From contig JAAMEZ010000003.1 in assembly GCA_013322215.1 (NCBI GenBank), positions 1-64,000 on the forward strand: a DNA stretch of 64,000 bases. Reading direction: 5' to 3'. A model generated the notes under the pieces. The model worked only from the letters and a program-made list of their open reading frames with translations. It ran no database searches and was not told where the DNA came from. The position numbers and the translations under genes were made by a program. The stretch is from Martinezella rhizogenes (GTDB lineage: Bacteria > Pseudomonadota > Alphaproteobacteria > Rhizobiales > Rhizobiaceae). Of this stretch, positions 20,262 to 32,764 are shown in pieces (the stretch's first letter is position 1; each line of letters begins with the position of its first letter).

Positions 20262-21326
20262 CTAAAGATCAGGATGCTCAATCCGCTCCCACTCGGCTCC
20301 ATCGAAACGGAAAATATCCTTCTGACCGACAACCCAGAGAATATCGCCAATGCAGCCCGCATAAAAAATGTAGTCGCCGCGCAATTTCGGCAATGCGGGT
20401 GAAAATCTCTTCAGATCGGAGGTTTTCGGATCAAGCTCGAAGAGCCCACCCGGACGCGTGCTCGATGGCAAGACCAATTTGCCTCGATAGGGTGTAATCA
20501 TATGAAAAAGATTATGCTGCGGTCGCAACGAAACCGGCGTAAAGCCGCGAGCATAGCTACCGTGCAGCAACACGCCTTCTCGACCACAGATCCAGATACT
20601 GTCGGAGTTTTCTATGTATATTCCGGTGAGAGCTGCCTCCGGAAGGTGGGTATTCAGCTCATGCAGTTCGGCGCCGTCCCAAAAGCATAGAATTGGCTTC
20701 GTGCCTTCCTCTCCGCAAATGTATATTGCGTCAGCACTTACACCTCTTATGCAATTGAAATAGACATTTCGCGGCTCATCCTTTTCAGAATTCATCAACC
20801 AATCGAGAAATTTGGGATCAGTTGTATCGGGAGCTTCTGCAGTGACTTTACGATGAGCTTCGGGATCATATAGAAGCTTATCCGTCAAAAGACGCCAATC
20901 ATCGCGCCCGTCGCGTATGTAAATTTGGCCGCCCGCTCCGGTAGCATATAATACGTCTTCTATAGACGCGATCGACAGTAGTCGGCCATAGCCCTTAGCG
21001 TCATCGGCCCAACTTCCGGCGCCATGAATTTTCTCGCGAAAATTGCCCTTCCACCATGCATGATAGACGTCGCCTTCAGAGGACATGTAAGTTAGATAAT
21101 CGGTCGTCGGATCAACATCCGGATTGCGGAACAACGTGATGTCCTGCATGTGGAAATTGAAGTTGTCATAGTACCATTGTTCGCCAACTTTACCGTCATG
21201 CTCAAAACGATAGATCCGGCAGTCAGGATCATATGTGTCCGATGTTTCCAACACGGCATTGATGATCAAGACATTCTCGGAGAAAGCGCAGGCGCGGGTA
21301 AATTCGATCTTTAGCTTCTCGCTCAT
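20262..21326 (-). CDS. Beta-propeller-like hypothetical protein of the T6SS effector cassette
   Basis: A 354-residue protein I do not recognise by name. It contains repeated strand-turn units of propeller type, such as VLYATGAGGQIYIRDGRDDW, AIYICGEEGTKPILCFWDGA, SIWICGREGVLLHG and ILWVVGQKDIFRFDGAEWERI. There is no signal peptide, membrane segment or catalytic motif, so it looks cytosolic. A frameshifted paralogue lies just upstream (21436-22401), and the pair ends the leftward T6SS cassette. It may be an orphan immunity or accessory protein; this is inferred from position only. Confidence 0.7.
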   Translation of the reverse strand: MSEKLKIEFTRACAFSENVLIINAVLETSDTYDPDCRIYRFEHDGKVGEQWYYDNFNFHMQDITLFRNPDVDPTTDYLTYMSSEGDVYHAWWKGNFREKIHGAGSWADDAKGYGRLLSIASIEDVLYATGAGGQIYIRDGRDDWRLLTDKLLYDPEAHRKVTAEAPDTTDPKFLDWLMNSEKDEPRNVYFNCIRGVSADAIYICGEEGTKPILCFWDGAELHELNTHLPEAALTGIYIENSDSIWICGREGVLLHGSYARGFTPVSLRPQHNLFHMITPYRGKLVLPSSTRPGGLFELDPKTSDLKRFSPALPKLRGDYIFYAGCIGDILWVVGQKDIFRFDGAEWERIEHPDL

Positions 21327-21435
21327 TATTTTAAATTCGCTCCTGAAATGGCACCAGAAGACAGCGCATCAAGTGTCGGTTGGTATAAGCTGAATAATCC
21401 GCGCTGCGCTATGTATGGAGCAGCCTAAAGCTTTC

Positions 21436-22401
21436 TCACCACTTCGGCGGCAAGCCCTTGAAATCACGCTGCAGCAATTCCGAAGGGATTGCGATCTCGG
21501 CCCAGTCTTCGCCGTCAAAGCTATGCACGCCGTGTTTTGCATCGAAGTATAAAGGATGTCGTCGACGGCCTGAACTTTGATCGGCGTGGGGATATTTCGG
21601 TTGATTATCGGATCAAGAACGGGCTTGAGAGGAGACAAAAGATGCCCGTCGAACCAGTGCAAGGCATAGTCTGAGGCGACGACCATCCGGTCATTGAACG
21701 TGGTGATGGAAATCAGTTTTTCGCTATCTCCTTTGAAAGAAACGTCCTGAAACCCGCTTTCGGCGTTCCCTATCAGGATCACGCCATTGCCGCCGACGAC
21801 CCAGACCTTGCCTTTCGTCTCGATGAAGATATCGGCGAGCGTCGCCGGTTCGGGATAGAACTTTCCGGATCGTGGCGTGGCAACAACCCGCCATTCTTGA
21901 CCGTTCCAATGATAAAGTCGGCCTTCGTTGACGCGACTGGGACCTTCGTCCGCCTCTCTGATGGCATATGCCTCCTCATTTCCGCCTCTTCCTCTTCGGT
22001 CAACGGTCTGTTCATACTCGTGGGAGACAAAATGACGCCCATGTAAATATCATCTTCCGAACCACCAACCAGATCGCCATAGATGAGATAGTCGTAGGTT
22101 TCCGGCGCTTGCGGTAGTTTTCCCTTATGGAACCAGTCCCAGCTGCCATCGGCGATGCGGTAGAGTTGTGAGTGATGACCGGTAACGAAAAAGGCCTCGC
22201 AGATCCGCGTGATCGCATTGACATATCCGAGATCGGTAGCATCGTCGGAATAGACTCCTGCGCCGCCGATTTTCATCTTCGAAGGCTTCCGGTCGTCTGC
22301 CGGTAGGGTGTAGACCTCGCCCTCGACGCTGAGCGCGTGGATGACGGGACGTCCATCGGAATCACGGCGGCATAGAGGCGATATGGATCGAAGGGCTTCA
22401 T
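21436..22401 (-). pseudogene. Frameshifted paralogue of the beta-propeller-like protein
   Basis: The reading starts MKPFDPYRLYAA at 22401 and ends LPPKW at a TGA (21436-21438), but only by switching frame three times: near 22361-22375 (before DSDGRPVIHALSVEGEVYT), near 21971-21985 (before EEAYAIREADEGPSR) and near 21545-21552 (before FDAKHGVHSFDGEDW). Joined, the product parallels the intact neighbour at 20262-21326: GAGVYSDDATDLGYVNAI against GAGSWADDAKGYGRLLSI, and KVWVVGGNGVILIG against SIWICGREGVLLHG. Three separate breaks suggest decay, although low read quality could produce the same picture. Confidence 0.8.
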
Positions 22402-22443: not shown

Positions 22444-22797
22444 TCAGGATTTCTCGATAAGAAATACTTCTGCTGTCTCTATGCCGATCCTGACCCTCAA
22501 GTAGTTGCTATCCTCCATCACCGCATGGGGTATGTCGATTTTTGCCACGGGATCATCGGTCAGAAGGACAATTTTATCTCCGTAGGACATCGATATCAGA
22601 ACGCTCCGCATCTCTCGTACTGGAAAGGGACAACGCAGACCGCGCGTATCCGCTATATACGCTATGCCAGCCGCAGCACAGAGAGCGTCTTTCCTCTCCC
22701 GATCTGAGCGAAGATAGGCATCGACAATAGCCTGCAGATCGGCTTCATCGATACATTCATCAGACCAGTCAAATTCGACAGGACGAATGTCGGACAT
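22444..22797 (-). CDS. TusA-domain (SirA-like) protein in the T6SS effector cassette
   Basis: A 117-residue protein. After about 48 residues of acidic, helical sequence comes a TusA/SirA-like domain: DTRGLRCPFPVREMRSVL carries the CPxP motif (Cys56), followed by GDKIVLLTDDPVAKIDIPHAV, the usual second half of the fold. In TusA the equivalent Cys carries persulfide sulfur for tRNA thiolation or other sulfur transfer. The ATG at 22797 follows GGATT; an ATG seven codons earlier is less likely. It lies 46 bases after the DUF3396 immunity gene and before the propeller genes, an unusual place for a sulfur carrier. Function here is unknown. Confidence 0.75.
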   Translation of the reverse strand: MSDIRPVEFDWSDECIDEADLQAIVDAYLRSDRERKDALCAAAGIAYIADTRGLRCPFPVREMRSVLISMSYGDKIVLLTDDPVAKIDIPHAVMEDSNYLRVRIGIETAEVFLIEKS

Positions 22798-22843
22798 CGG
22801 ATTCCCTCGCTCAAGCAACTTCCAGGCGATTTATTTCGGCTCA

Positions 22844-23842
22844 CTAGTCGAAACGCCTGAGCCAGTTCAATGTGTAGGCAAGATATGCCTCGTCATCCAA
22901 ATCCTGCATGGCTCTCGGGAGTTTCAAAATGCCGTATTGATAATCTTCAAATCGGATCGGCTGGATGAAGCGGGCAACCGTTTGATAGGTTTTGGGAATA
23001 CCGCCTGTCTCGGCTGTTCCGAGTATGGGAAGCTTTCCAGCTCGTAGAACGACCCCATCCGAATATCGCTTCACGTCAATATCAGGTGTCAGCCTTTCAC
23101 GGATCATCGTGTCTTCGCCGCCAAGAGCGTCAACGCTAGCCGATCCGAGGATGGTCAACCAGTTTGAAGAGCGAGGCCGCTCATAGCCACCTTCACTGCA
23201 CTCTGACCAATATGTTCCCATCGCATCATACTCCAGACCTGGATACTGCATCAACCATGGGTAGTAGTAGGCATCCTCCATCAGCTCGACACCGGGTCGG
23301 GACAAGGCTCCCAAACCGGAGGAGCCATGGATTGCACCAAGCCGATCGCACCACCGCGTCACGAATGCGACATAACGATCTGGATCTTCGAAAACGAAGC
23401 TGGGGGGGAAGTACACCTTCAGTCCCGAAAGAGGCCTTCTCGTCCCTTTCTCATGCCCAAACGCCATGAACAAATAGAACGAGGGATCGTCAGTTTCCGC
23501 CATATCCACATGTTTAAAGAACAGATAGGCGGTTTCGGAGCTGCCCAGATCGCCGATACTTGTAAAATCTTCAGGAATTCCTACCCCTTTGTATCGCTGC
23601 ATTCGCTTACTGTTACCGTCGCCATAAGGCTGAAAGTGTGTGATCTTATCGGTGAACACGGCCAAATAGTCTTGCAGGCTATCAAGCAAAGCCTGTCGTT
23701 TCTCCTTCTTCCATCCATCGAGAAAATAGATCGACAGCAAGATACCGACGCGAGAACGAATGTTGTGCTTACTCCCTGACCGTAGAACACCACGCTCCTC
23801 GATATCTTTTGGGTCCAGTTTCAGGTCTTGCGGATATTCCAT
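22844..23842 (-). CDS. Type VI immunity family protein (DUF3396)
   Basis: A 332-residue cytosolic protein resembling DUF3396 immunity proteins. Features include an N-terminal strand RVGILLSIYFLDGWKKEKR, LGSSETAYLFFKHVDMAE, and a Trp/Tyr-rich core AYYYPWLMQYPGLEYDAMG followed by NWLTILG. DUF3396 proteins are found as partners of T6SS nuclease effectors. It starts 12 bases after the PAAR-like nuclease gene, so translation is coupled to that of the effector it presumably neutralises. No secretion signal is present, which fits protection against a cytoplasmic DNase. Confidence 0.82.
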   Translation of the reverse strand: MEYPQDLKLDPKDIEERGVLRSGSKHNIRSRVGILLSIYFLDGWKKEKRQALLDSLQDYLAVFTDKITHFQPYGDGNSKRMQRYKGVGIPEDFTSIGDLGSSETAYLFFKHVDMAETDDPSFYLFMAFGHEKGTRRPLSGLKVYFPPSFVFEDPDRYVAFVTRWCDRLGAIHGSSGLGALSRPGVELMEDAYYYPWLMQYPGLEYDAMGTYWSECSEGGYERPRSSNWLTILGSASVDALGGEDTMIRERLTPDIDVKRYSDGVVLRAGKLPILGTAETGGIPKTYQTVARFIQPIRFEDYQYGILKLPRAMQDLDDEAYLAYTLNWLRRFD

Positions 23843-23854
23843 GCGCCATTCCTT

Positions 23855-25414
23855 TTAACAGGGAGCTTCAGGCTTTGCTTTGCCGGACTCGCAGTCGCAG
23901 TCCTCTTCGATATCGAGATTGATCAGGTCTTTTCTTGGGTTCAGCTTATTCTTCCGCGCAATCTCTTCATATGCACCATCGGCCTGCATAGGAGTCTGCC
24001 CATCTACACCACCGCCGGCCTTTGGAAATTTGAGTTCGAATATCTTCCACAGCTTGCCGTCTTTCCACCAGGAGATATCCGGTCGCGGCATCCCGCGCTT
24101 AGGATATTGGCTGGATGGCATGCCCTTGGTGTCAGGCCCCTGACTTTCCGCAGCCTCGTAACCGTTGTTAGGATCATAACTTACTTCGGGACGAGGACCA
24201 TCCGCCGTCGGGCTTTTCGGATAACGTGGAGTCCCGTCCGGATAGGTGCCGTTCTTCGGATCGTAATTATTTTCTCGTATTTTTTGCGCCACACATTCGG
24301 TGTAGGTCTGCGCGCCCTGCCTGTCCTTCATGCATTCGCAGGCCATTTTACAGATATCGTCGCAGGCCTCCCGCTGGGCGGACACTCGAACGTTGGTGGC
24401 GGTTGTGGCTGCTGCCTTTGCTTTATCCCGCGCTGCGGACGAGACGACAGCCTCGACGGTCTTCTTCCTAATTGCGTCAAAGGCGTCCATATCGCCAGCT
24501 GGCAGCGCCGTCGCACGCACTTCGGCCGCGCCTTTTGCCCAAATGGCCATCTGTTCGGTAGTTAGCCCCTGGTTCGGCGTGGTAGCGTAGTAGTCGAATT
24601 CATGAAGTTGATTCTCGATGCGTTGCCGATTAACGGCTCCACCAGTTAGCTCGTTCAGCATGTTGGCCGTGGATTCAGCTCGCCCGAAGATGCTCCAGCG
24701 AAGCAACCTCGACGTCCATGACCCTGGCACGGTGGTTGTCGCACCACCGGATTGTGGGACAGTCGTAGTGTTTCTCGATGAGCCGCCTGCTCCTAACCCT
24801 CCGCCTGCATCCGTCATCGTTCCTGTCGCAGCTTGTGCAATCTGGTAAGAGCCGGGAGGCAAGGACGTCGCCGGACCGAAAGCCTCGTTAAGATCGCCAA
24901 AACCAGCCGATCGCAATGATCCCGGCACAGGATCATTGTCCGTGAGTGTCGGATAGGTCGCTGTGTCGCGGACAAAATACGCCTCACCCACCGTGTTCCT
25001 GTTGTTCATGTCGAAACGGTGCAGATGCGTGATGATCGGGGACCCCTCGGCACGCACCAAGTCAGCGCCTTCGATGGGTTGACAAATGCCTTCCACCGTT
25101 CCTGATTTCACGCCCTTCGCTTGGCCCGGCTCATCACCGTGAACGTGGCAAGTATTGGAACGCAGCACCATGACCTTCTGACTGGTAAAGCGCACGGACT
25201 CCGTATAGTTCTCATCGTGACCGCAAAAATCGACCACGGGATATGGAATGGGTGGCGTCGAGGAGCCGATCGGTGTCTTGCAGACATCCGGCGACAGCGA
25301 GACGATGCGTGCGGCATCGTTGTCACGCAATCCCTCTCGCGGTCGGCTTGTCGTCCACGGAGATGGATACTGTGGTTCGCCGGCATAATTGTCCTTGGGC
25401 GGGGTGAGACTCAT
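23855..25414 (-). CDS. T6SS effector: PAAR-like (DUF4150) domain with VRR-type nuclease C-terminus
   Basis: A 519-residue predicted spike-loaded toxin. Residues about 30-150 resemble DUF4150/PAAR-like tips (SLSPDVCKTPIGSSTPPIPYPV, then VMVLRSNTCHVHGDEPG). A Gly/Thr-rich linker and helical middle follow. A Cys-rich patch (DDICKMACECMKD) precedes the C-terminal nuclease, where RPDI, FELKFP and Q-x-DGAYEEIA give the D / E-x-K / Q arrangement of VRR-NUC (PD-(D/E)xK) enzymes. It likely cuts DNA in target cells. The gene overlaps the DUF2169 adaptor gene by 4 bases and is followed by its immunity gene. Confidence 0.85.
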   Translation of the reverse strand: MSLTPPKDNYAGEPQYPSPWTTSRPREGLRDNDAARIVSLSPDVCKTPIGSSTPPIPYPVVDFCGHDENYTESVRFTSQKVMVLRSNTCHVHGDEPGQAKGVKSGTVEGICQPIEGADLVRAEGSPIITHLHRFDMNNRNTVGEAYFVRDTATYPTLTDNDPVPGSLRSAGFGDLNEAFGPATSLPPGSYQIAQAATGTMTDAGGGLGAGGSSRNTTTVPQSGGATTTVPGSWTSRLLRWSIFGRAESTANMLNELTGGAVNRQRIENQLHEFDYYATTPNQGLTTEQMAIWAKGAAEVRATALPAGDMDAFDAIRKKTVEAVVSSAARDKAKAAATTATNVRVSAQREACDDICKMACECMKDRQGAQTYTECVAQKIRENNYDPKNGTYPDGTPRYPKSPTADGPRPEVSYDPNNGYEAAESQGPDTKGMPSSQYPKRGMPRPDISWWKDGKLWKIFELKFPKAGGGVDGQTPMQADGAYEEIARKNKLNPRKDLINLDIEEDCDCESGKAKPEAPC

Positions 25415-26523
25415 GCGTCACTGGCCTCCGCTTGCTGTCTCTGCTCTTGGGAGAACACCACACGGTTGACCGTCAAGCGTGCGCCGTCCGCTTCTGGTAA
25501 CGGAAAACGAGCCCGCCAAGTCAAGAAGATTGTTTCACTGTCTCGCCAGTCGAACTGCACGCCGTCGAGGTTAAAGAGAAACCATTTATCCTCGCCCTCC
25601 TGCTGGCATCGAACGCCGAGTGTGACGGCAGGCAGGCGTCCATACGCTTCTGGCAAATTGGGGTGAAGGTTATTCAGGGCATAATCTTCATCGCCTTTAA
25701 GCCAAGGCTGAGCGATGAGGTCGGGATGCGCACATTGCCAGAAACGCGGATCGAAGTCGGAGGGTAATAGTGGATGGCGACTAGCCAACCAGTCATCATC
25801 ATAAGTGCCGGTATATTGCTGCCGGGGACGCCACCATGGAGGAATGGGACCGAAACCCTCGGGTCGATAAGGTGTCCGCCAATCGAGGCTCGCCTCATCG
25901 ATAGCCGTGACCGAAGGGGCCTCCACTATCATGGTTTCATCGCTGCAATAAGGATCTACGATGCCACAACCGAGCGGATTGGCCGGCTCGACATCGGAAG
26001 GAATGCCCTGCTCAGCATTGCCCGTTCCCGGCACCATGCCTCCATAGGCGTGATGCCAATCGATGGCGACCTGGGTTGTCGGGATGGGCTCATCAAGCTT
26101 CCAATGTTGCAGGACGTGTTTCGGTCGATCAGCAGAAAACCCCGCCCATCCATCTCGAAATACGGGCCGCCAATGGCGCCTGCCATATACCCGCAGGGCC
26201 TTTTCCTTTACGCCAACTCGTAGTGAACAAGTCCAGCTTGGTGCGTCCCTGCCGCCCGGCGCATAGGCTTTGCCCAAGAACGTAATGTCCGTGCCCGGCT
26301 TTTCCGGCGTCAGGTCGGTCTGGCGAAGCATGATCCCCTCATGAGGATCGCCAGCATAGCTGTCGGTCCATTGGAAATCCTCCTGACTTGCGGCCAGCGC
26401 GACTGGCCGCCCCTGTCGATGGAGGAAGGTGCCTCGAACGGCAACGACACAATCGAGATCACCATTCCGATCGAACTGACGAAAAGCGAAGGCACGCAGC
26501 GGAGTACGGTTAATCAGTTCCAT
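25411..26523 (-). CDS. DUF2169 domain T6SS effector adaptor
   Basis: A 370-residue DUF2169 protein. The opening INRTPLRAFAFRQFDRNGD, VVAVRGTFLHRQGRP and the later RAFGRRHWRP-like segment YGRRHWRPVFRDGWAGFSA are characteristic, as is ALNNLHPNLPEAYGRLPAVTLGVRC near the C-terminus. DUF2169 proteins are usually encoded between vgrG and a PAAR/DUF4150 effector and are thought to help load the toxin on the spike. Here it sits exactly between those two genes, with a 4-base ATGA overlap to the effector. Some residues are polar-rich, but no transmembrane segment is seen. Confidence 0.88.
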   Translation of the reverse strand: MELINRTPLRAFAFRQFDRNGDLDCVVAVRGTFLHRQGRPVALAASQEDFQWTDSYAGDPHEGIMLRQTDLTPEKPGTDITFLGKAYAPGGRDAPSWTCSLRVGVKEKALRVYGRRHWRPVFRDGWAGFSADRPKHVLQHWKLDEPIPTTQVAIDWHHAYGGMVPGTGNAEQGIPSDVEPANPLGCGIVDPYCSDETMIVEAPSVTAIDEASLDWRTPYRPEGFGPIPPWWRPRQQYTGTYDDDWLASRHPLLPSDFDPRFWQCAHPDLIAQPWLKGDEDYALNNLHPNLPEAYGRLPAVTLGVRCQQEGEDKWFLFNLDGVQFDWRDSETIFLTWRARFPLPEADGARLTVNRVVFSQEQRQQAEASDA

Positions 26524-26537
26524 GGACGAAACTGACC

Positions 26538-28802
26538 TCAGTTATGATCGATGGGCTTGCCGCGCATCTGAAAATGCTCGGAGGCGACGAAATTGAAATT
26601 CTTACCGAGAATGATCACTTCACCATTGGATTTCATGATGAACTTGGAGTCGCCGCATTCGATAACGAACTCCTCACCAACTGCGATTTTCTTGAATTTG
26701 CCCACGCTCTCCAGCGAGGTCTGACCGACATTCGTGACCTTGCTCATACCGATCTGCTCGGCGCGTGCGATACCGATCGTGTCGGACTTAAAGGCGCCGA
26801 CAACGGTGTTCATGATGCCCGGAAGCGGGAATAGGCCGCCTGCGGCATCCCCCACTCCCGTGCCTGATCCGGCAAGATCCGTGCCGGCATCCGCCCTTGG
26901 ATTAAGCCCTGAAACAACGCCTTCCCGGCTGCCAAGACCACCAGCCCCTAAGAAACCCAGTGCCGAGGAAGCAACTGTCCCCGCGAAGGCGGTGAGACCT
27001 GCGCCGCCGCCACCGGCAATCTGGCCTGCCTGTGCCAGCAATCCGGCCGTATGACCGGACAATCCCTGCACCGCCCCCATCAACGCCATGGCCATCGGCC
27101 CCGTACCGCCGACCACTGTATTCACCGATCCGCCGATCTCGTGCTTCTGGTTGCCGCTCACTTCGACGGCGCGGTTGCCGCCGATGGAGGCGACTTCGTG
27201 GCGGTCGACGCGTTTGGTGCGGTCGTTGCGGATGCGCGTCGTCTGGTCCTTCTGGGCGTGGAAGAACATGTTTTCGCGGCCGGCATCGTCCTCGAAAGTC
27301 ATCTCGTTGAAGCCGGTGCCCTTATGGGTATTGGAGCGCATGACCATGCGGGTCTTATTCCCAGGCAGATCGTAGGGCACGCCATTGCTCGGGTTCGGCA
27401 CCACGCCGGTCACCAACGGCCGGTCCGGATCGCCGTCGATGAAGGCGACCATGACTTCCATGCCTATGCGGGGGATGACCTGGCCGCCCCATGTGCCGCC
27501 GGCCCAGCTCTGGGCGACGCGCACCCAGCAGGTATCCGATCCATCCTTCTTGGCGCGGCGATCCCAGGGATACCAGAGCTTGATGCGGCCATACTGATCG
27601 GGATGGATTTCCTCCCCCGAAGGGCCGGCGACGATCGCGACCTGCGTGCCGCGAATGCGTGGCCGCTCGGTCTTGCGATGCGGCGTCATTGTGACGCGCG
27701 ACGGCACGGCTTCGAATTCGTTGCTATATTCCGGCTGATCCATGTTGGTTTCATAGGAGGGATCGACCGCAAAATGCGTGGCGCGCACGATGACATGTTC
27801 TTCATAGATATGCTCGGGATGCGCCACCTCATAGGGCGTAAACCGCCGGCCGGCTTCCAGCACGCGCGACGATGATCGCCCAACGACCCGATTATGGTCA
27901 GCCTCGCTCGCCTGCATACGCAGCTTCTGCGCCCGCTCGGCCTCAGCGACCGATGAAATGCGAGCCGGATATTCGTAAAGCTCGCTCTTCATCGCCCCCG
28001 GCATCTGCACCAGTGACGGTGTCGTGGTGCCTGGCACCATCTGCGGCGTCTCGAAATTCCAGTCAGCGCCGGCGCGTTGCCCGGGAACGTAAGCGTAATG
28101 CTTCATCCAATCGTTGATGTGGTTGCGATCCGTTGAACCTTGGGCAAGGCGGACACGGCCCTCGCCCTGCGCGGAGGGAGAAGGCCCCGCCCAGGAATTG
28201 GCGCCATCGGCAACATGCAGCCGATGGCTGCCTTCCTCATGCGAAAACCAGTAGAAGAGACCATCTTCCTCGAAGCGACGGGTCAGATAATCCAGATCCG
28301 TTTCGTTCCATTGCACGGAGTAATGCTGCGGCGGAGGCGGTGTGACGACGCCGGAAACATCCGGAGTAGGAATCCCGTGTTCAGAAAAGAGCGTCTCAAC
28401 GATATCGATGCTGGTCTTGTCCATCCATATGCGGCAGTCGGAACGCTGGGACAGAAGCCACATCTGCGGCTTCAGCACCATCGAATAGGAGCGCAGGCCA
28501 CGCGTGATCGGCGGCCCCTCCTGAAGTGCCGTCACGAGACCGTTGAAGGGACGGCGGACACCATCGCCCCCATCTTCGGCCTGTTGAACCTCCAGTGAGA
28601 TGTCGATCAGACGGCCGATCAGCTCCTCCGGCTGAATGACCTCGCGCTTGGCGCGAACCGAGAGCCTGATGTCGAAGAGCGACGATACACCTTCCGTTAT
28701 CATCACTCGTTCTGGCAGGAGCTGGTCCGTACCGAGCGGCGATGAGACCCGAAGATTTCGGGTCGCCTGGATGAAATCATTGGCCGAGGGCTGATCGTTC
28801 AT
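26538..28802 (-). CDS. vgrG: VgrG spike protein (TssI)
   Basis: A 754-residue trimeric spike. The N-terminal gp27-like region (QATRNLRVSSPLG, VQWNETDLDYLTRRFEEDGLFYWFSH) is followed by the gp5-like OB domain (EEIHPDQYGRIKLWYPWDRR, SCWVRVAQSWAGGTWGGQ-type sequence, IPRIGMEVMVAFIDGDPDRPLVTGVV) and the beta-helical needle (FEDDAGRENMFFHAQKDQTTRI). The C-terminal part contains an Ala/Gly-rich hydrophobic insertion (about residues 575-670) before a last needle-like segment ending in IDHN. No catalytic extension is recognised, so toxicity is probably carried by the PAAR-like effector two genes on. Confidence 0.93.
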   Translation of the reverse strand: MNDQPSANDFIQATRNLRVSSPLGTDQLLPERVMITEGVSSLFDIRLSVRAKREVIQPEELIGRLIDISLEVQQAEDGGDGVRRPFNGLVTALQEGPPITRGLRSYSMVLKPQMWLLSQRSDCRIWMDKTSIDIVETLFSEHGIPTPDVSGVVTPPPPQHYSVQWNETDLDYLTRRFEEDGLFYWFSHEEGSHRLHVADGANSWAGPSPSAQGEGRVRLAQGSTDRNHINDWMKHYAYVPGQRAGADWNFETPQMVPGTTTPSLVQMPGAMKSELYEYPARISSVAEAERAQKLRMQASEADHNRVVGRSSSRVLEAGRRFTPYEVAHPEHIYEEHVIVRATHFAVDPSYETNMDQPEYSNEFEAVPSRVTMTPHRKTERPRIRGTQVAIVAGPSGEEIHPDQYGRIKLWYPWDRRAKKDGSDTCWVRVAQSWAGGTWGGQVIPRIGMEVMVAFIDGDPDRPLVTGVVPNPSNGVPYDLPGNKTRMVMRSNTHKGTGFNEMTFEDDAGRENMFFHAQKDQTTRIRNDRTKRVDRHEVASIGGNRAVEVSGNQKHEIGGSVNTVVGGTGPMAMALMGAVQGLSGHTAGLLAQAGQIAGGGGAGLTAFAGTVASSALGFLGAGGLGSREGVVSGLNPRADAGTDLAGSGTGVGDAAGGLFPLPGIMNTVVGAFKSDTIGIARAEQIGMSKVTNVGQTSLESVGKFKKIAVGEEFVIECGDSKFIMKSNGEVIILGKNFNFVASEHFQMRGKPIDHN

Positions 28803-28808
28803 CTGCGC

Positions 28809-29357
28809 TTATCCTACCAGTGAGCTTGCCGAGCCTATATTGCCGGCGCTGCCAATCTGTTGCTTGCGGCCGCCGACGAGATAGACCATCTGGAACAGGG
28901 TTCCGTTCGGCAGCGTCTCGTGCATGCCCGGGCCGTAAAGTACCTGCGGGGTCAGGATCTTGCCGATATCGGTGCGGTTCGGCACCGTGCCAAGCAAATA
29001 GGCGCCGCGCGCCATCAAGACCCGTGTTTCGCCGTCGCTGACGGAATAATTGAATTGCGCAACGAACACCGAATGATGGTTGATGTCCATTTCGCGAATG
29101 ATGTGCGCTTCATTGTTGCGCAGCCATCTCTGGAGCCAATGCGTCAGCGACATTTCGTTGGCTTTTTCGGAGAACATCCGGAAAAGCGATGCCGCAGCGC
29201 CCATGGCTTGACCGCGTGCCGCAAATTCACGCGGTCCGCTCTGGTAGGAAAAATAATCGTAGGATGGGCCACGGCCGGCACGCCGGACGGGCGGAAGATC
29301 GGTCTGCTTCACCGGCTCCATCTGCAGCGCCGGCGACGAAACGAAAAAATCTACCAT
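28809..29357 (-). CDS. Unknown protein encoded between hcp and vgrG
   Basis: A 182-residue protein with no family I recognise. ATG at 29357 is chosen because GGAGG lies 5-9 bases upstream; an earlier in-frame start (29429) has no such site. It is soluble, with a basic Pro-rich N-terminus, a helical middle (ASLFRMFSEKANEMSLTHWLQRWLRNNEAHIIREM) and a beta-rich end (VLMARGAYLLGTVPNRTDIGKI, GTLFQMVYLVGG). The stop lies 6 bases before the vgrG start, so the two are probably translated together. Position suggests a spike-assembly factor or Hcp-borne cargo; function is unknown. Confidence 0.78.
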   Translation of the reverse strand: MVDFFVSSPALQMEPVKQTDLPPVRRAGRGPSYDYFSYQSGPREFAARGQAMGAAASLFRMFSEKANEMSLTHWLQRWLRNNEAHIIREMDINHHSVFVAQFNYSVSDGETRVLMARGAYLLGTVPNRTDIGKILTPQVLYGPGMHETLPNGTLFQMVYLVGGRKQQIGSAGNIGSASSLVG

Positions 29358-29431: not shown

Positions 29432-29461
29432 TTCCGGCGCGCTGATACCAACGCGCCGGAA
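29432..29461 (-). other. Strong stem-loop after hcp
   Basis: TTCCGGCGCG and CGCGCCGGAA are perfect 10-base inverted arms with a 10-base loop, 13 bases past the hcp stop. No T-run follows on the transcribed strand. It probably attenuates readthrough or protects hcp mRNA, so Hcp is made in excess over VgrG. Confidence 0.65.
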
Positions 29462-29474
29462 AGCGATACTAATG

Positions 29475-29951
29475 TTAGGCAGCCTTGGTCGTTGCCAGGT
29501 CGTAAGACGCGATCATCGGCGACTGCGGCGTCTGCGAGTCGTCGTAAGGCGTGTACTTCACTTCCATCTTGGTGAAGTTGAGCTTGATCGTTTCGACCGG
29601 GCGGTCGCCGTTGGAATCGACCGAGTAGCTGGCGATCAGCGTGTTGGTGAGCGTGTACTCGATGTAGGTATCGCCCGGGTTGCCGGTCGTTACCAGATGG
29701 ATCACGGCTTGCTTGCCGGTGCGGCCCGAGCATGCCTCCTGGAACAGCTTCGTCGACGAGGAATCGCTGACCTTGGTCAGGATAACTTCCGAAACGGTCG
29801 GCTCGGAAGCTTCGCGGTTCGCAGCCGAACCGGCTGACGTCTTCATGTTACGCGAAACATTCCAGTGGATGACTTCGATGTCCATCCACTTCTTGTGCTG
29901 CTCGTGGGTTGCATCGCCCTGAATTCCGTCGATTTGCAGATAAATCGGCAT
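29475..29951 (-). CDS. hcp: Hcp tube protein (TssD)
   Basis: A 158-residue Hcp1-like protein that forms the hexameric inner tube. Seen: MPIYLQIDGIQGDATHEQHKKWMDIEVIHW (strand 1-2), SEPTVSEVILTKVSDSSSTKLFQEAC, and the C-terminal ETIKLNFTKMEVKYTPYD, which is strongly conserved. No extension with toxin features is present. It is preceded by AGGAGAG at a good distance. The gene lies after clpV and before the unknown gene and vgrG, and is flanked by stem-loops on both sides. Confidence 0.95.
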   Translation of the reverse strand: MPIYLQIDGIQGDATHEQHKKWMDIEVIHWNVSRNMKTSAGSAANREASEPTVSEVILTKVSDSSSTKLFQEACSGRTGKQAVIHLVTTGNPGDTYIEYTLTNTLIASYSVDSNGDRPVETIKLNFTKMEVKYTPYDDSQTPQSPMIASYDLATTKAA

Positions 29952-30016: not shown

Positions 30017-32764
30017 CTAATGCCGCATCCGGGCGCTGTGTTCGTCCGGGGCTGCTTTATTCGCCGTGCCGCCTTCCTCGGGGCCAGCGAATTCATTGTC
30101 GCCCACCGTATTCTCCTCAATGAGAAAGCGGTGGTCGTGAAAGCTTATGGTGATGCCGCCAACCTTGCGCCCCGTCGCAACCGCATCGAGGAAAAAGGTT
30201 GAAAGCTCTGGCAAAAGATCGCGGCCAATCATGGTTTCGATGGCGCGCGCGCCCATTTCACTCGCCTTGGCCCGGCCGACCAGCGCCTCGCGGGCTTCGG
30301 GGGCAAGCGAAACGCTCGTGCCATACGACGCAGCGACGCGATCACGGATGCGGCCGATCTGGATGTCGACGATCCCGCTCAGCGTCTCGCCATTCAACGG
30401 CATGAAGGGCAGAACGGTCGTACGGCCGACAAAGGCCGGCTTGAAGTACTTCTGCAATTCGGGAAGCAGCAGCGCTTCCAGCGCCTCGCCCTCGGGCATG
30501 GTTTCTGGATCGGCAGCCAAGGCTGCGAGCAGTTCCGAGCCGGTATTGGCCGTCATCACGATAGTGGTGTTCTTGAAATCGATGTCGCGGCCTTCACCGT
30601 CGCGCAGCGTTCCCTTGTCAAAGACCTGGTAGAACACTTCCTGGACGCCCGGATGCGCCTTGTCGATCTCATCCAGCAGCAGGACGCCATAAGGCCGACG
30701 CCGCACGGCCTCGGTCAGCACGCCACCTTCACCGTAGCCGACGTAGCCGGGCGGCGATCCGAGCAGCAGCGAAACCTTATGCTCCTCCTTGAACTCGGAC
30801 ATGTTGATGGTCGTCAGATACTGGCTGCCGCCATAAAGAAGATCGGCCAGCGAAAACGCTGTCTCGGTCTTGCCGGTTCCTGACATGCCAACAAGCAGGA
30901 AGACGGCGGGCGGGCGGCGTGGATCGGAAAGGCCGGCACGTGCGGACCGCATCGCAGCCGAAATCCGCGCAATTGCGTTATCCTGTCCGAGCACACGCTC
31001 CTTCAGCCTGGCGTCGAGCGTCTTGACGGTCTCAACCTGGTCGGACAGCAGTTTGCCGACGGGAATGCCGGTCCAGCGCGCGACGATCCCGGCGATCACT
31101 TCCTTGTCGACCACGCGGGGAACCAGCGGCGTTTCGCCGGCAACGTCGGCAAGGCTGCGTTCCGCCTGCACAAGGGCTGCGCGAGCAACGTCAACGGATG
31201 AACCGTTGGGCGGGAAGAGGGCGACATTGTCGCCGTGCGAATGAACACCATCTTCGGCCTGCTGAGCATTGGGATCGGCAAGCGCGGCTTCGATGCGATC
31301 CGCCTCACCCGACAGCCTGATTTCAGCATCGAGCTTGGCCTGCAACCGCTCGATCTCGCTTGCCACTTCGTGCTTTTCGCTCTCGATGACGGCAAGGCGC
31401 TCGACAATATCCGATGTCGGCGGCTCGGCGGAAAGTGCGGTGGCCTCAACCTCCAGCATTTCCTGCTCGTTGCGCAATCCCTTCAGCGCTTCGGGAACGG
31501 TCTGACGCGCCAGAGAGACAGCCGCGGCTGCGGTATCGATGAGGCTGATCGCCTTGTCGGGCAATTGCCGCGCCGGAATATAGCGGGCCGAAAGGCGAAC
31601 AGCCGCCGCCAGCGCCTCGTCTCGAATGCGCACCTTGTGATGGGCTTTGAAGCTGCCGACCACGCCGCGCAACATACGGATTGCCGTTTCTTCGTCGGGC
31701 TCAAGCACCTGAACGACCTGGAAGCGTCGGGTCAGCGCCGCATCCTTCTCGATGTAGCGCTTGTATTCGCTCCAAGTCGTCGCTGCGATCGTCCTGAGCT
31801 CGCCGCGTGCCAGCGCCGGCTTCAGAATATTGGCGGCATCGCCCTGCCCGGCCTGTCCGCCGGCACCGATCAAGCCATGCGCCTCGTCGATGAACAGGAT
31901 GATCGGCTCCACCGAGGCACGTACGGCCGCGACAACGCCGTGCAAGCGGCGCTCGAATTCGCCTTTCACGCCGGCGCCAGCCTGCAGCAGGCTGAGATCG
32001 AGAAGGAGAATCCGTACCGGCTTCAGCATATCCGGCACGTTGCCGGCGGCGATCTCCAACGCCAGCGCCTCTGCAACGGCGGTCTTACCGACACCTGCCT
32101 CGCCGACCAGCATCGGATTGTTCTGACGGCGGCGCATCAGGATATCGATGACCTGGCGCAGCTCACGATCGCGACCGATGACCGGATCAACACGACCACC
32201 CCTTGCATCGGCTGTCATATCGCGCGTGTACAGGCGCAGGAATTCATTTTCGCCGGCAGCGGCAACAGCCTCGGAATTCTGTGACGGCGAAGATGTGCCG
32301 CTGGGAGTGGAAACCGCGTTCAACTTTTTTTCGAGCGCGGTGCGATCAATGCTGCGCAGCGAAGGTGCCATGCCTCGCGCCATGATTCGCAGCGACTGGT
32401 CATCGCTCAGCGCGGTCAGAAGATCAGCGAGGGTGATGCTGTTCCGCCCACATTGAAGCGACGCGACAAGCCACGCCTCGCGCATCAGAGCAAGCAGGTT
32501 TTGAGAAAGCACCAACGCGGCACCATCGCCCCTCGGCAAGTCGGCGATGGCGCTATCAAGCTCGGTGCGGAGCGTTGCAGAAGGAACGCTAAGTTCTTCA
32601 AACAAAGAGCAAACTTCAGATACATCCAGCAATGATAGTATCCAATGTGCGACATCGACATTTGCATGGCGATCACGTGCTGCATGCGACGCTGCAGCCT
32701 CGAGACCGACGCGCAATGCGGGCTCAAGCGTTCTGATCAGACGATTGAGATCGATATTCGACAC
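30017..32764 (-). CDS. clpV: ClpV ATPase (TssH)
   Basis: A 915-residue AAA+ disaggregase that recycles contracted TssB-TssC sheaths. Seen: an N-terminal Clp-N domain (about 1-150), first AAA+ module with Walker A GEAGVGKT and Walker B ILFIDEAH, a coiled-coil middle domain (about 410-520), second module with Walker A GMSGTGKTE and Walker B LLLDEIDKAHPGVQ, then a ClpB-type D2 small domain. Start GTG at 32764 follows AAGGAGG about 10 bases earlier. It is divergent from tssA and leads the leftward T6SS operon, which continues to hcp and vgrG. Confidence 0.95.
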   Translation of the reverse strand: MSNIDLNRLIRTLEPALRVGLEAAASHAARDRHANVDVAHWILSLLDVSEVCSLFEELSVPSATLRTELDSAIADLPRGDGAALVLSQNLLALMREAWLVASLQCGRNSITLADLLTALSDDQSLRIMARGMAPSLRSIDRTALEKKLNAVSTPSGTSSPSQNSEAVAAAGENEFLRLYTRDMTADARGGRVDPVIGRDRELRQVIDILMRRRQNNPMLVGEAGVGKTAVAEALALEIAAGNVPDMLKPVRILLLDLSLLQAGAGVKGEFERRLHGVVAAVRASVEPIILFIDEAHGLIGAGGQAGQGDAANILKPALARGELRTIAATTWSEYKRYIEKDAALTRRFQVVQVLEPDEETAIRMLRGVVGSFKAHHKVRIRDEALAAAVRLSARYIPARQLPDKAISLIDTAAAAVSLARQTVPEALKGLRNEQEMLEVEATALSAEPPTSDIVERLAVIESEKHEVASEIERLQAKLDAEIRLSGEADRIEAALADPNAQQAEDGVHSHGDNVALFPPNGSSVDVARAALVQAERSLADVAGETPLVPRVVDKEVIAGIVARWTGIPVGKLLSDQVETVKTLDARLKERVLGQDNAIARISAAMRSARAGLSDPRRPPAVFLLVGMSGTGKTETAFSLADLLYGGSQYLTTINMSEFKEEHKVSLLLGSPPGYVGYGEGGVLTEAVRRRPYGVLLLDEIDKAHPGVQEVFYQVFDKGTLRDGEGRDIDFKNTTIVMTANTGSELLAALAADPETMPEGEALEALLLPELQKYFKPAFVGRTTVLPFMPLNGETLSGIVDIQIGRIRDRVAASYGTSVSLAPEAREALVGRAKASEMGARAIETMIGRDLLPELSTFFLDAVATGRKVGGITISFHDHRFLIEENTVGDNEFAGPEEGGTANKAAPDEHSARMRH

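What the first reader, a model, noticed from the sequence alone, without database searches (positions are those of the whole stretch)
28809..29357. Unrecognised gene between hcp and vgrG
A 182-residue protein with no family I know is translated 6 bases before vgrG, in the core of the tube-spike block. A conserved but undescribed spike-assembly factor, adaptor or Hcp cargo is possible.
Basis: seen in the sequence. Interest (0 to 1): 0.5.

Follow-up and report, generated by a model that had tools for sequence, protein, structure and literature searches.

The report
Swappable gene behind Hcp tube gene
In some soil bacteria related to legume root-nodule symbionts, a small protein of no known family sits in a swappable slot of a molecular harpoon's genes where relatives keep toxins, so it is probably a payload of the harpoon rather than a part of its spike.

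Summary
The gene is real: window 28809-29357, minus strand, 182 codons, conserved start and ribosome-binding site, stop 6 bases before vgrG, purifying selection (pN/pS 0.19, 16 genomes). No profile library, PDB sequence search or (low-confidence) model identifies it. Call it X.

X is not a fixed spike part. The hcp-vgrG interval is an exchangeable slot. Of 40 hcp loci in the genus, 16 hold X; 10 a pair of the proven Re78/Re79 toxin-immunity type; 7 an unrelated protein Y; 3 Y plus Rap1a/Tae4; 1 Rap1a/Tae4; 1 Y plus an RNase A-type toxin; 2 nothing convincing. Close relatives (Hcp 99%, VgrG 88-95% identical) carry Y instead. Divergent X (26-54% identity) occurs in other Rhizobiaceae genera and one other family: 23 of 23 intact copies follow hcp, 21 of 23 precede vgrG.

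Best reading (0.55): a new Hcp-linked type VI cargo family in a known effector slot. Unusual: 21 of 23 loci leave no room for an immunity gene beside it. Adaptor and spike-assembly roles are disfavoured. Secretion, toxicity and target are untested.

The parts
28809..29357 (-). X, the 182-aa protein of the finding
   Evidence: Translation; conserved ATG and ribosome-binding site and purifying selection; homologues.
29475..29951 (-). hcp (TssD), tube protein; left border of the slot
   Evidence: PF05638 E 2.6e-37; directly upstream of X in 23 of 23 intact X loci.
29432..29461 (-). G+C-rich stem-loop just behind the hcp stop (13 base pairs in the window)
   Evidence: hcp-X spacer z -3.95; the 4 X loci folded (of 16 in the genus) have z -3.5 to -5.4; the 2 Y loci folded have a stem but z -0.6 and -2.1.
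26538..28802 (-). vgrG (TssI), spike protein; right border of the slot
   Evidence: PF05954 and TIGR03361.
30017..32764 (-). ClpV/TssH-like ATPase, upstream of hcp; used for the tree
   Evidence: ORF; the name is recalled from the sequence, not from a family search; tree.
25411..26523 (-). DUF2169 protein (Tap-type adaptor family) of the spike module
   Evidence: PF09937 E 1.9e-80; varies independently of X.
23855..25414 (-). Tox-PAAR-like protein, probable spike effector
   Evidence: PF13665 E 3.2e-29.
22844..23842 (-). TsiV-type immunity protein of that effector
   Evidence: PF11876 E 4.7e-29.

Best explanation
[quoted passage not shown] Shown: a conserved coding gene of about 18-21 kDa (one short divergent member 16.5 kDa), always behind hcp, in a slot where near relatives hold unrelated proteins, among them known toxin-immunity pairs, while hcp and vgrG stay. 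Inferred: it is read from the hcp transcript at a lower level than Hcp, loads into or onto the Hcp tube, is ejected, and acts in the recipient. Because most loci leave no room for an immunity gene beside it, I infer that it acts on something the producer lacks or does not expose (for example a eukaryotic or other non-kin target) or is a non-toxic passenger. Its activity is unknown.
For: 23 of 23 intact copies directly follow hcp, 2 of them without vgrG behind. In the same slot, 22 of the other 24 hcp loci of the genus hold Re78/Re79-type pairs, Tae4/Rap1a, an RNase A-type toxin with CdiI_2, or Y. On the ClpV tree the label X needs 5 changes, 4 forced by well-supported branches; a Y locus (L068) is sister to an X locus (L010). 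X and Y show no profile similarity. Slot occupants are T6SS-secreted in R. etli (Re78, PMC10215855) and Agrobacterium (Atu4347, which co-precipitates with Hcp in the native cell and is dispensable for Hcp secretion, PMC3702570). X is about 20 kDa, in the range of small Hcp cargos (recalled). pN/pS 0.19.
Against: No direct evidence of secretion, Hcp binding or toxicity. In 21 of 23 loci there is no room for an immunity gene beside X, unlike Re78 or Tae4; in the other two (L104, L106) the ORFs behind X were not assessed. None of the motif patterns I scanned recurs in the family, so no enzyme activity is suggested. Y is also a singleton in 7 of 11 genus loci that hold it, so a shared accessory role of X and Y is possible. 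X is strongly clustered on the ClpV tree (5 changes against a shuffled mean of 12.6), so it is mostly inherited within a clade, as a stable accessory would be. Atu4347 did not bind Hcp in E. coli.
Confidence: 0.55

Rival explanations
1. X is a cytoplasmic accessory of Hcp: a chaperone or loading factor for Hcp or for small cargos encoded elsewhere. Y would be its unrelated stand-in.
For: Strict link to hcp (23 of 23), singleton gene, no recurrent catalytic motif, and Y can stand before Tae4 or RNase A toxin pairs, as a helper might.
Against: Loci with Hcp 92-94% identical hold neither X nor Y (the 10 Re78-type loci and L081 of the genus), so such a helper would not be needed there. X and Y are unrelated.
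Confidence: 0.22
2. X is a spike-assembly factor or an adaptor for VgrG or for the effector behind it, as two of the reader's options say.
For: Stop 6 bases before vgrG, next to vgrG in 21 of 23 loci.
Against: X stays when the VgrG C-terminus and the DUF2169/PAAR module change, VgrG of 88-95% identity occurs without X, and 2 of 23 X loci have no vgrG beside X.
Confidence: 0.1
3. X is an ordinary antibacterial toxin whose immunity gene lies elsewhere in the genome.
For: The other proven slot occupants are antibacterial (PMC10215855, PMC3702570); unlinked immunity is conceivable and a genome-wide search for a co-occurring gene was not done.
Against: Swapping X in by local recombination would leave a recipient unprotected unless immunity came too. 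Over the stretches compared, the queries common to all X loci of the genus are ClpV, Hcp, X and the VgrG N-terminal part, which X-less loci share; only window genes were used as queries.
Confidence: 0.07
4. X is an orphan immunity protein or the remnant of a lost toxin-immunity pair.
For: Single gene in a slot that elsewhere holds pairs; a Tai-like gene without a recognised Tae stands in L124.
Against: pN/pS 0.19 and retention across genera behind hcp; no hydrophobic N-terminus as in the periplasmic Re79 or Rap1a types (17-residue Kyte-Doolittle maximum 0.58 for X).
Confidence: 0.06

Closest known systems
Re78/Re79 of Rhizobium etli Mim1 (T6SS effector and immunity pair)
   Same: Same slot between hcp and vgrG in related clusters (PMC10215855).
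   Different: Re78-type proteins are about 362 aa with a partner of about 310 aa that has a signal peptide; X is a single 182-aa protein. Re78-type queries and X were not aligned with each other; neither matches a Pfam family.
Tae4/Rap1a (Tai4), including Agrobacterium Atu4347/Atu4346
   Same: Same slot; small (Tae 167 aa); Atu4347 is secreted and dispensable for Hcp secretion (PMC3702570).
   Different: Tae4 is an amidase family with an immunity partner; X has no Tae4 match and no room for a partner in 21 of 23 loci.
Tfe2 of Serratia (antifungal T6SS effector)
   Same: Works-like candidate: reported as an effector without an associated immunity protein, able to ride in the Hcp tube (PMC6617251, passages).
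   Different: Reported to be encoded away from T6SS genes (same passages); no sequence comparison with X was made; X has no shown target.
Protein Y (about 197 aa, unnamed, this study)
   Same: Often a single gene in the same slot; replaces X in near-identical backbones.
   Different: No profile similarity to X; in 4 of 11 genus loci it stands before a toxin-immunity pair.

Membership tests
T6SS cargo effector carried with Hcp | Encoded with hcp in a T6SS cluster | tested here: met
   23 of 23 intact copies directly behind hcp.
T6SS cargo effector carried with Hcp | T6SS-dependent secretion and association with Hcp | not testable with these tools
   Needs secretome and pull-down.
T6SS cargo effector carried with Hcp | Activity on a target cell | not testable with these tools
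   No fold, no family.
Antibacterial effector-immunity pair | Cognate immunity gene adjacent to the effector | tested here: not met
   No room beside X in 21 of 23 loci; in L104 and L106 the ORFs behind X were listed but not assessed.
Tae4 amidase (PF14113) | Match to the Tae4 profile | tested here: not met
   0 Pfam families for X; the slot Tae of L081 does match.
Tap adaptor (DUF2169, DUF4123) | Adaptor domain and link to a particular spike effector | tested here: not met
   No Pfam match; X is kept while the spike module varies.
T6SS core component | Present in all clusters of the type | tested here: not met
   16 of 40 hcp loci of the genus hold X.
MIX-motif effector | hRxGhhYhh core (motif recalled, not from a call) | tested here: not met
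   0 of 11 members match the core pattern.

The most novel reading that the evidence does not exclude
X founds a family of Hcp-borne effectors that need no immunity protein because they act on non-kin, possibly eukaryotic, targets (plant, fungus, protist). It is exchanged one-for-one with antibacterial toxin cassettes in the same slot, so that lineages switch the harpoon's tube payload between kinds of target. Y may be a second such family.
Probability: 0.22. Interest if true: 0.65.

Novelty: new member of a known kind. Interest (0 to 1): 0.42.

Why it matters
It turns an anonymous ORF into a testable prediction: the place right behind hcp in Rhizobiaceae is a payload slot, and X is a payload family that effector hunts based on immunity genes would miss. 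If secreted, it would add a small cargo without adjacent immunity to the effectors of rhizobia, whose T6SS affects nodule competition (Re78, PMC10215855, abstract and passages). Near relatives that differ in X or Y at this place are natural pairs for asking what the switch does.

Tried and rejected
Look-ups that led nowhere: Pfam, NCBIfam, PHROGs, PADLOC (best E-values 0.017-0.35, treated as chance); PDB sequences for X (best E 0.27) and for the family profile (0.34 peptidyl-tRNA hydrolase, 1.2 gasdermin-D N-terminal; treated as chance); viral contigs (0 relatives among 24 stretches). Fold: two AlphaFold2 jobs, mean pLDDT 47.3 and 48.9; Foldseek of the first against PDB gave 0 matches with E up to 0.001; not used.

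Corrected on the way: with one sequence or a narrow profile, X looked limited to a clade of Rhizobium. One search showed divergent members in other genera.

Rows dropped: 7 of the 8 matching genomes (the eighth is the window's own), E 0.009-0.096, short pieces, taken as chance, G841 (E 0.008, 38 residues), taken as chance, and G593 counted as a broken remnant, G974 (E 6e-5), a 75-aa ORF with no Hcp match in 14 kb, not counted. Of the Re78-type loci, L073 seems to have a disrupted second gene; it was still counted as that type.

Set aside: a glycine-zipper or membrane-spanning reading of the Gly/Ala-rich stretch around residues 47-66. Of 12 members, only L106 and L107 reach 1.55 and 1.46 on the 17-residue Kyte-Doolittle scale there; X itself reaches 0.58. 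L108 peaks at 1.75, but elsewhere. The motif patterns (MIX core, HxxD, GxSxG, HExxH) hit once in 11 members (GxSxG in L105).

Limits: one search compares without gaps, and its Y-Y control (L066 with L067) also falls to 0.15-0.35 behind hcp, apparently by an indel, so the exchange claim rests on the unrelated proteins, not on those numbers alone. The tree is of ClpV, which lies in the cluster and may recombine with it. Genomes are one per species and partly drafts.

Full report
The observation. Window 28809-29357 on the minus strand codes for 182 residues. It lies between hcp (29475-29951, PF05638) and vgrG (26538-28802, PF05954/TIGR03361), with 6 bases between its stop and the vgrG ATG. The ATG follows GAGG(T/C)CGCC in 16 of 16 genomes. 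Selection is purifying: mean pN/pS is 0.19 over 16 genomes, against 0.011 for Hcp, 0.10 for the first 530 residues of VgrG and 0.14 for ClpV. The first 36 residues are the most constrained part examined (0.09) and the last 16 columns the least (0.57). I call the protein X.

What it matches. Nothing known. Pfam, NCBIfam and PHROGs list no family for X; 11 diverse members give only weak matches that I treat as chance. PDB sequences give chance-level hits. Two AlphaFold2 models are below mean pLDDT 50, and Foldseek found no match with E up to 0.001.

Where it occurs. X is in 16 of 148 genomes of the genus; named carriers among the 12 records include R. hainanense, R. multihospitium, R. dioscoreae, R. 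lusitanum, R. miluonense and R. tropici. A profile search of 297 genomes of the family found six more intact members in other genera, 26-54% identical to X, and one broken remnant (G593). A search of 199 genomes of the order found one in another family (G956, 45% identical). That makes 23 intact copies. All 23 directly follow hcp and 21 of 23 are followed by vgrG. In the other two (L104, L106) no vgrG match lies in the 18 kb fetched, and vgrG matches are on other contigs. X is tied to hcp more firmly than to vgrG.

The slot. Hcp of the window's type is in 39 of 148 genomes of the genus, at 40 loci. I looked at what follows hcp in all 40: X alone 16; a 362-aa protein plus a 310-aa protein 10; an unrelated protein of about 197 aa, 'Y', alone 7; Y plus Rap1a-type immunity plus Tae4 amidase 3; Rap1a plus Tae4 alone 1; Y plus an RNase A-type toxin and CdiI_2-type immunity 1; nothing convincing 2 (both with Hcp only 42-43% identical). 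Pfam was run on one or two examples of each type; the rest were assigned by their translations. Of 26 further hcp loci from the family search (regions; reading), 6 hold X, 1 an X remnant, 5 a Re78/Re79-like pair, 4 Tai/Tae, 1 an RNase A-type toxin, 1 Y, 7 go straight from hcp to vgrG, and 1 (L122) has no recognised slot gene. Six of those 7 empty loci have Hcp only 47-56% identical.

What the other occupants do. The 362/310 pair is of the Re78/Re79 type: the R. etli Mim1 record NC_021911.1 codes a protein 85.6% identical to the 362-aa one. That this is Re78 itself is inferred from strain, length and slot, since the record shown has no annotation. Re78 and Re79 are reported to lie between hcp and vgrG; Re78 in the medium falls to 10% in an hcp mutant, and it is toxic in E. 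coli with a signal peptide unless Re79 is made (PMC10215855, passages and section 3.1). In Agrobacterium the genes between hcp (Atu4345) and vgrG (Atu4348) are Atu4346 and Atu4347: Atu4347 is T6SS-secreted, co-precipitates with Hcp in the native cell but does not bind it in E. coli, and both are dispensable for Hcp secretion (PMC3702570, passages). PMC8546570 (passages) describes a tai-tae pair in the hcp operon.

Exchange. On a maximum-likelihood tree of ClpV from 39 loci the label X needs 5 changes, at least 4 forced by well-supported branches; all slot labels together need 13, where 6 is the minimum. X is nevertheless clustered (shuffled mean 12.6 changes), so it is mostly inherited within a clade. 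A Y locus (L068) is sister to an X locus (L010), and two more Y loci (L066, L067) lie beside the window's group. Across five X-Y pairs hcp is 92-96% identical in DNA and the first 700 bases of vgrG 76-92% per 100-base block, while the interval codes for unrelated proteins (hhalign probability under 1%). The spike module behind vgrG changes independently: X is found with both VgrG C-terminal types and with DUF2169 proteins from 28% to 99.7% identical to the window's (three X loci, L009, L010 and L011, show none in the stretch held).

Mechanism. My best account (0.55) is a tube payload: X is read from the hcp operon beyond a stem-loop that stands behind hcp in the 4 X loci folded (z -3.5 to -5.4) and may keep it below Hcp in amount, loads with Hcp, and is ejected. 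Place, replacement and selection are shown; transcription, loading, secretion and action are inferred. Two facts pull against an ordinary antibacterial toxin. In 21 of 23 loci the gaps beside X leave no room for an immunity gene (at most 123 bases before X and 118 behind it); in L104 and L106 the ORFs behind X were not assessed. And the 33 columns invariant in 10 of 11 members (L108 left out) include no Cys, His, Glu, Ser or Lys, and no scanned motif recurs; Asp, Arg, Asn, Thr and Tyr do occur among them, so an enzyme is not excluded. Effectors without immunity are known when the target is not kin: Tfe2 of Serratia is described as an antifungal effector with no associated immunity protein (PMC6617251, passages). 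Hence the bolder reading, a payload aimed at non-kin, probability 0.22 (it is a part of the 0.55). The main rival is a cytoplasmic Hcp accessory or chaperone (0.22). An adaptor or spike-assembly factor (0.10), a toxin with unlinked immunity (0.07) and an orphan immunity protein (0.06) fit less well.

Novelty. The kind of thing, a cargo gene in the hcp-vgrG slot, is known; I found no description of this family. Literature searches were made, over open-licence PubMed Central papers only, seen as listings apart from the five papers opened (PMC10215855, PMC8546570, PMC3702570, PMC3925238, PMC6617251; passages, and one section of the first). A paper outside that library may name it.

Noticed in passing
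L066, L067, L068, L076, L077, L078, L088, L072, L075, L080, L089, L116 (slot behind hcp): Protein Y, about 197 aa, no Pfam match for the two members scanned, a second unknown family of the slot, alone or before Tae4 or RNase A-type toxin pairs.
   Followed up: partly
L094 1114-1698: A 194-aa ORF in a genome of the same phylum matches Y over about 43 residues (E 3e-5) and is followed by a 136-aa ORF that looks hydrophobic; the flanks look like gyrA and a methyltransferase gene (recalled). A possible effector-immunity pair outside any T6SS cluster seen in the 3 kb held.
   Followed up: no
window 29432-29461 (-): G+C-rich stem-loop directly behind hcp in the 4 X loci folded; the 2 Y loci folded also carry a stem, with weaker z-scores. 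Perhaps it keeps downstream genes below Hcp in amount.
   Followed up: partly
window 21369-22276 (-): Two adjoining ORFs (137 and 165 aa); the 165-aa one matches the middle of longer proteins related to the neighbouring 354-aa ORF at 20262-21326, so this may be a broken paralogue. Described only.
   Followed up: no
window 22444-22818 (-): A TusA-type sulfurtransferase domain (PF01206, E 2.5e-10, scanned as 22444-22800) inside the effector region, next to the TsiV-type immunity gene; its role there is unclear.
   Followed up: no
L087 and L088 (both genome G023): One genome carries two hcp loci on one contig, one with a Re78-type pair and one with Y in the slot.
   Followed up: no
L002-L013, L090-L092: VgrG behind X falls in two groups by identity to the window's VgrG (about 87-98% and 69-70%), apparently from different C-terminal parts, with different modules behind.
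   Followed up: partly
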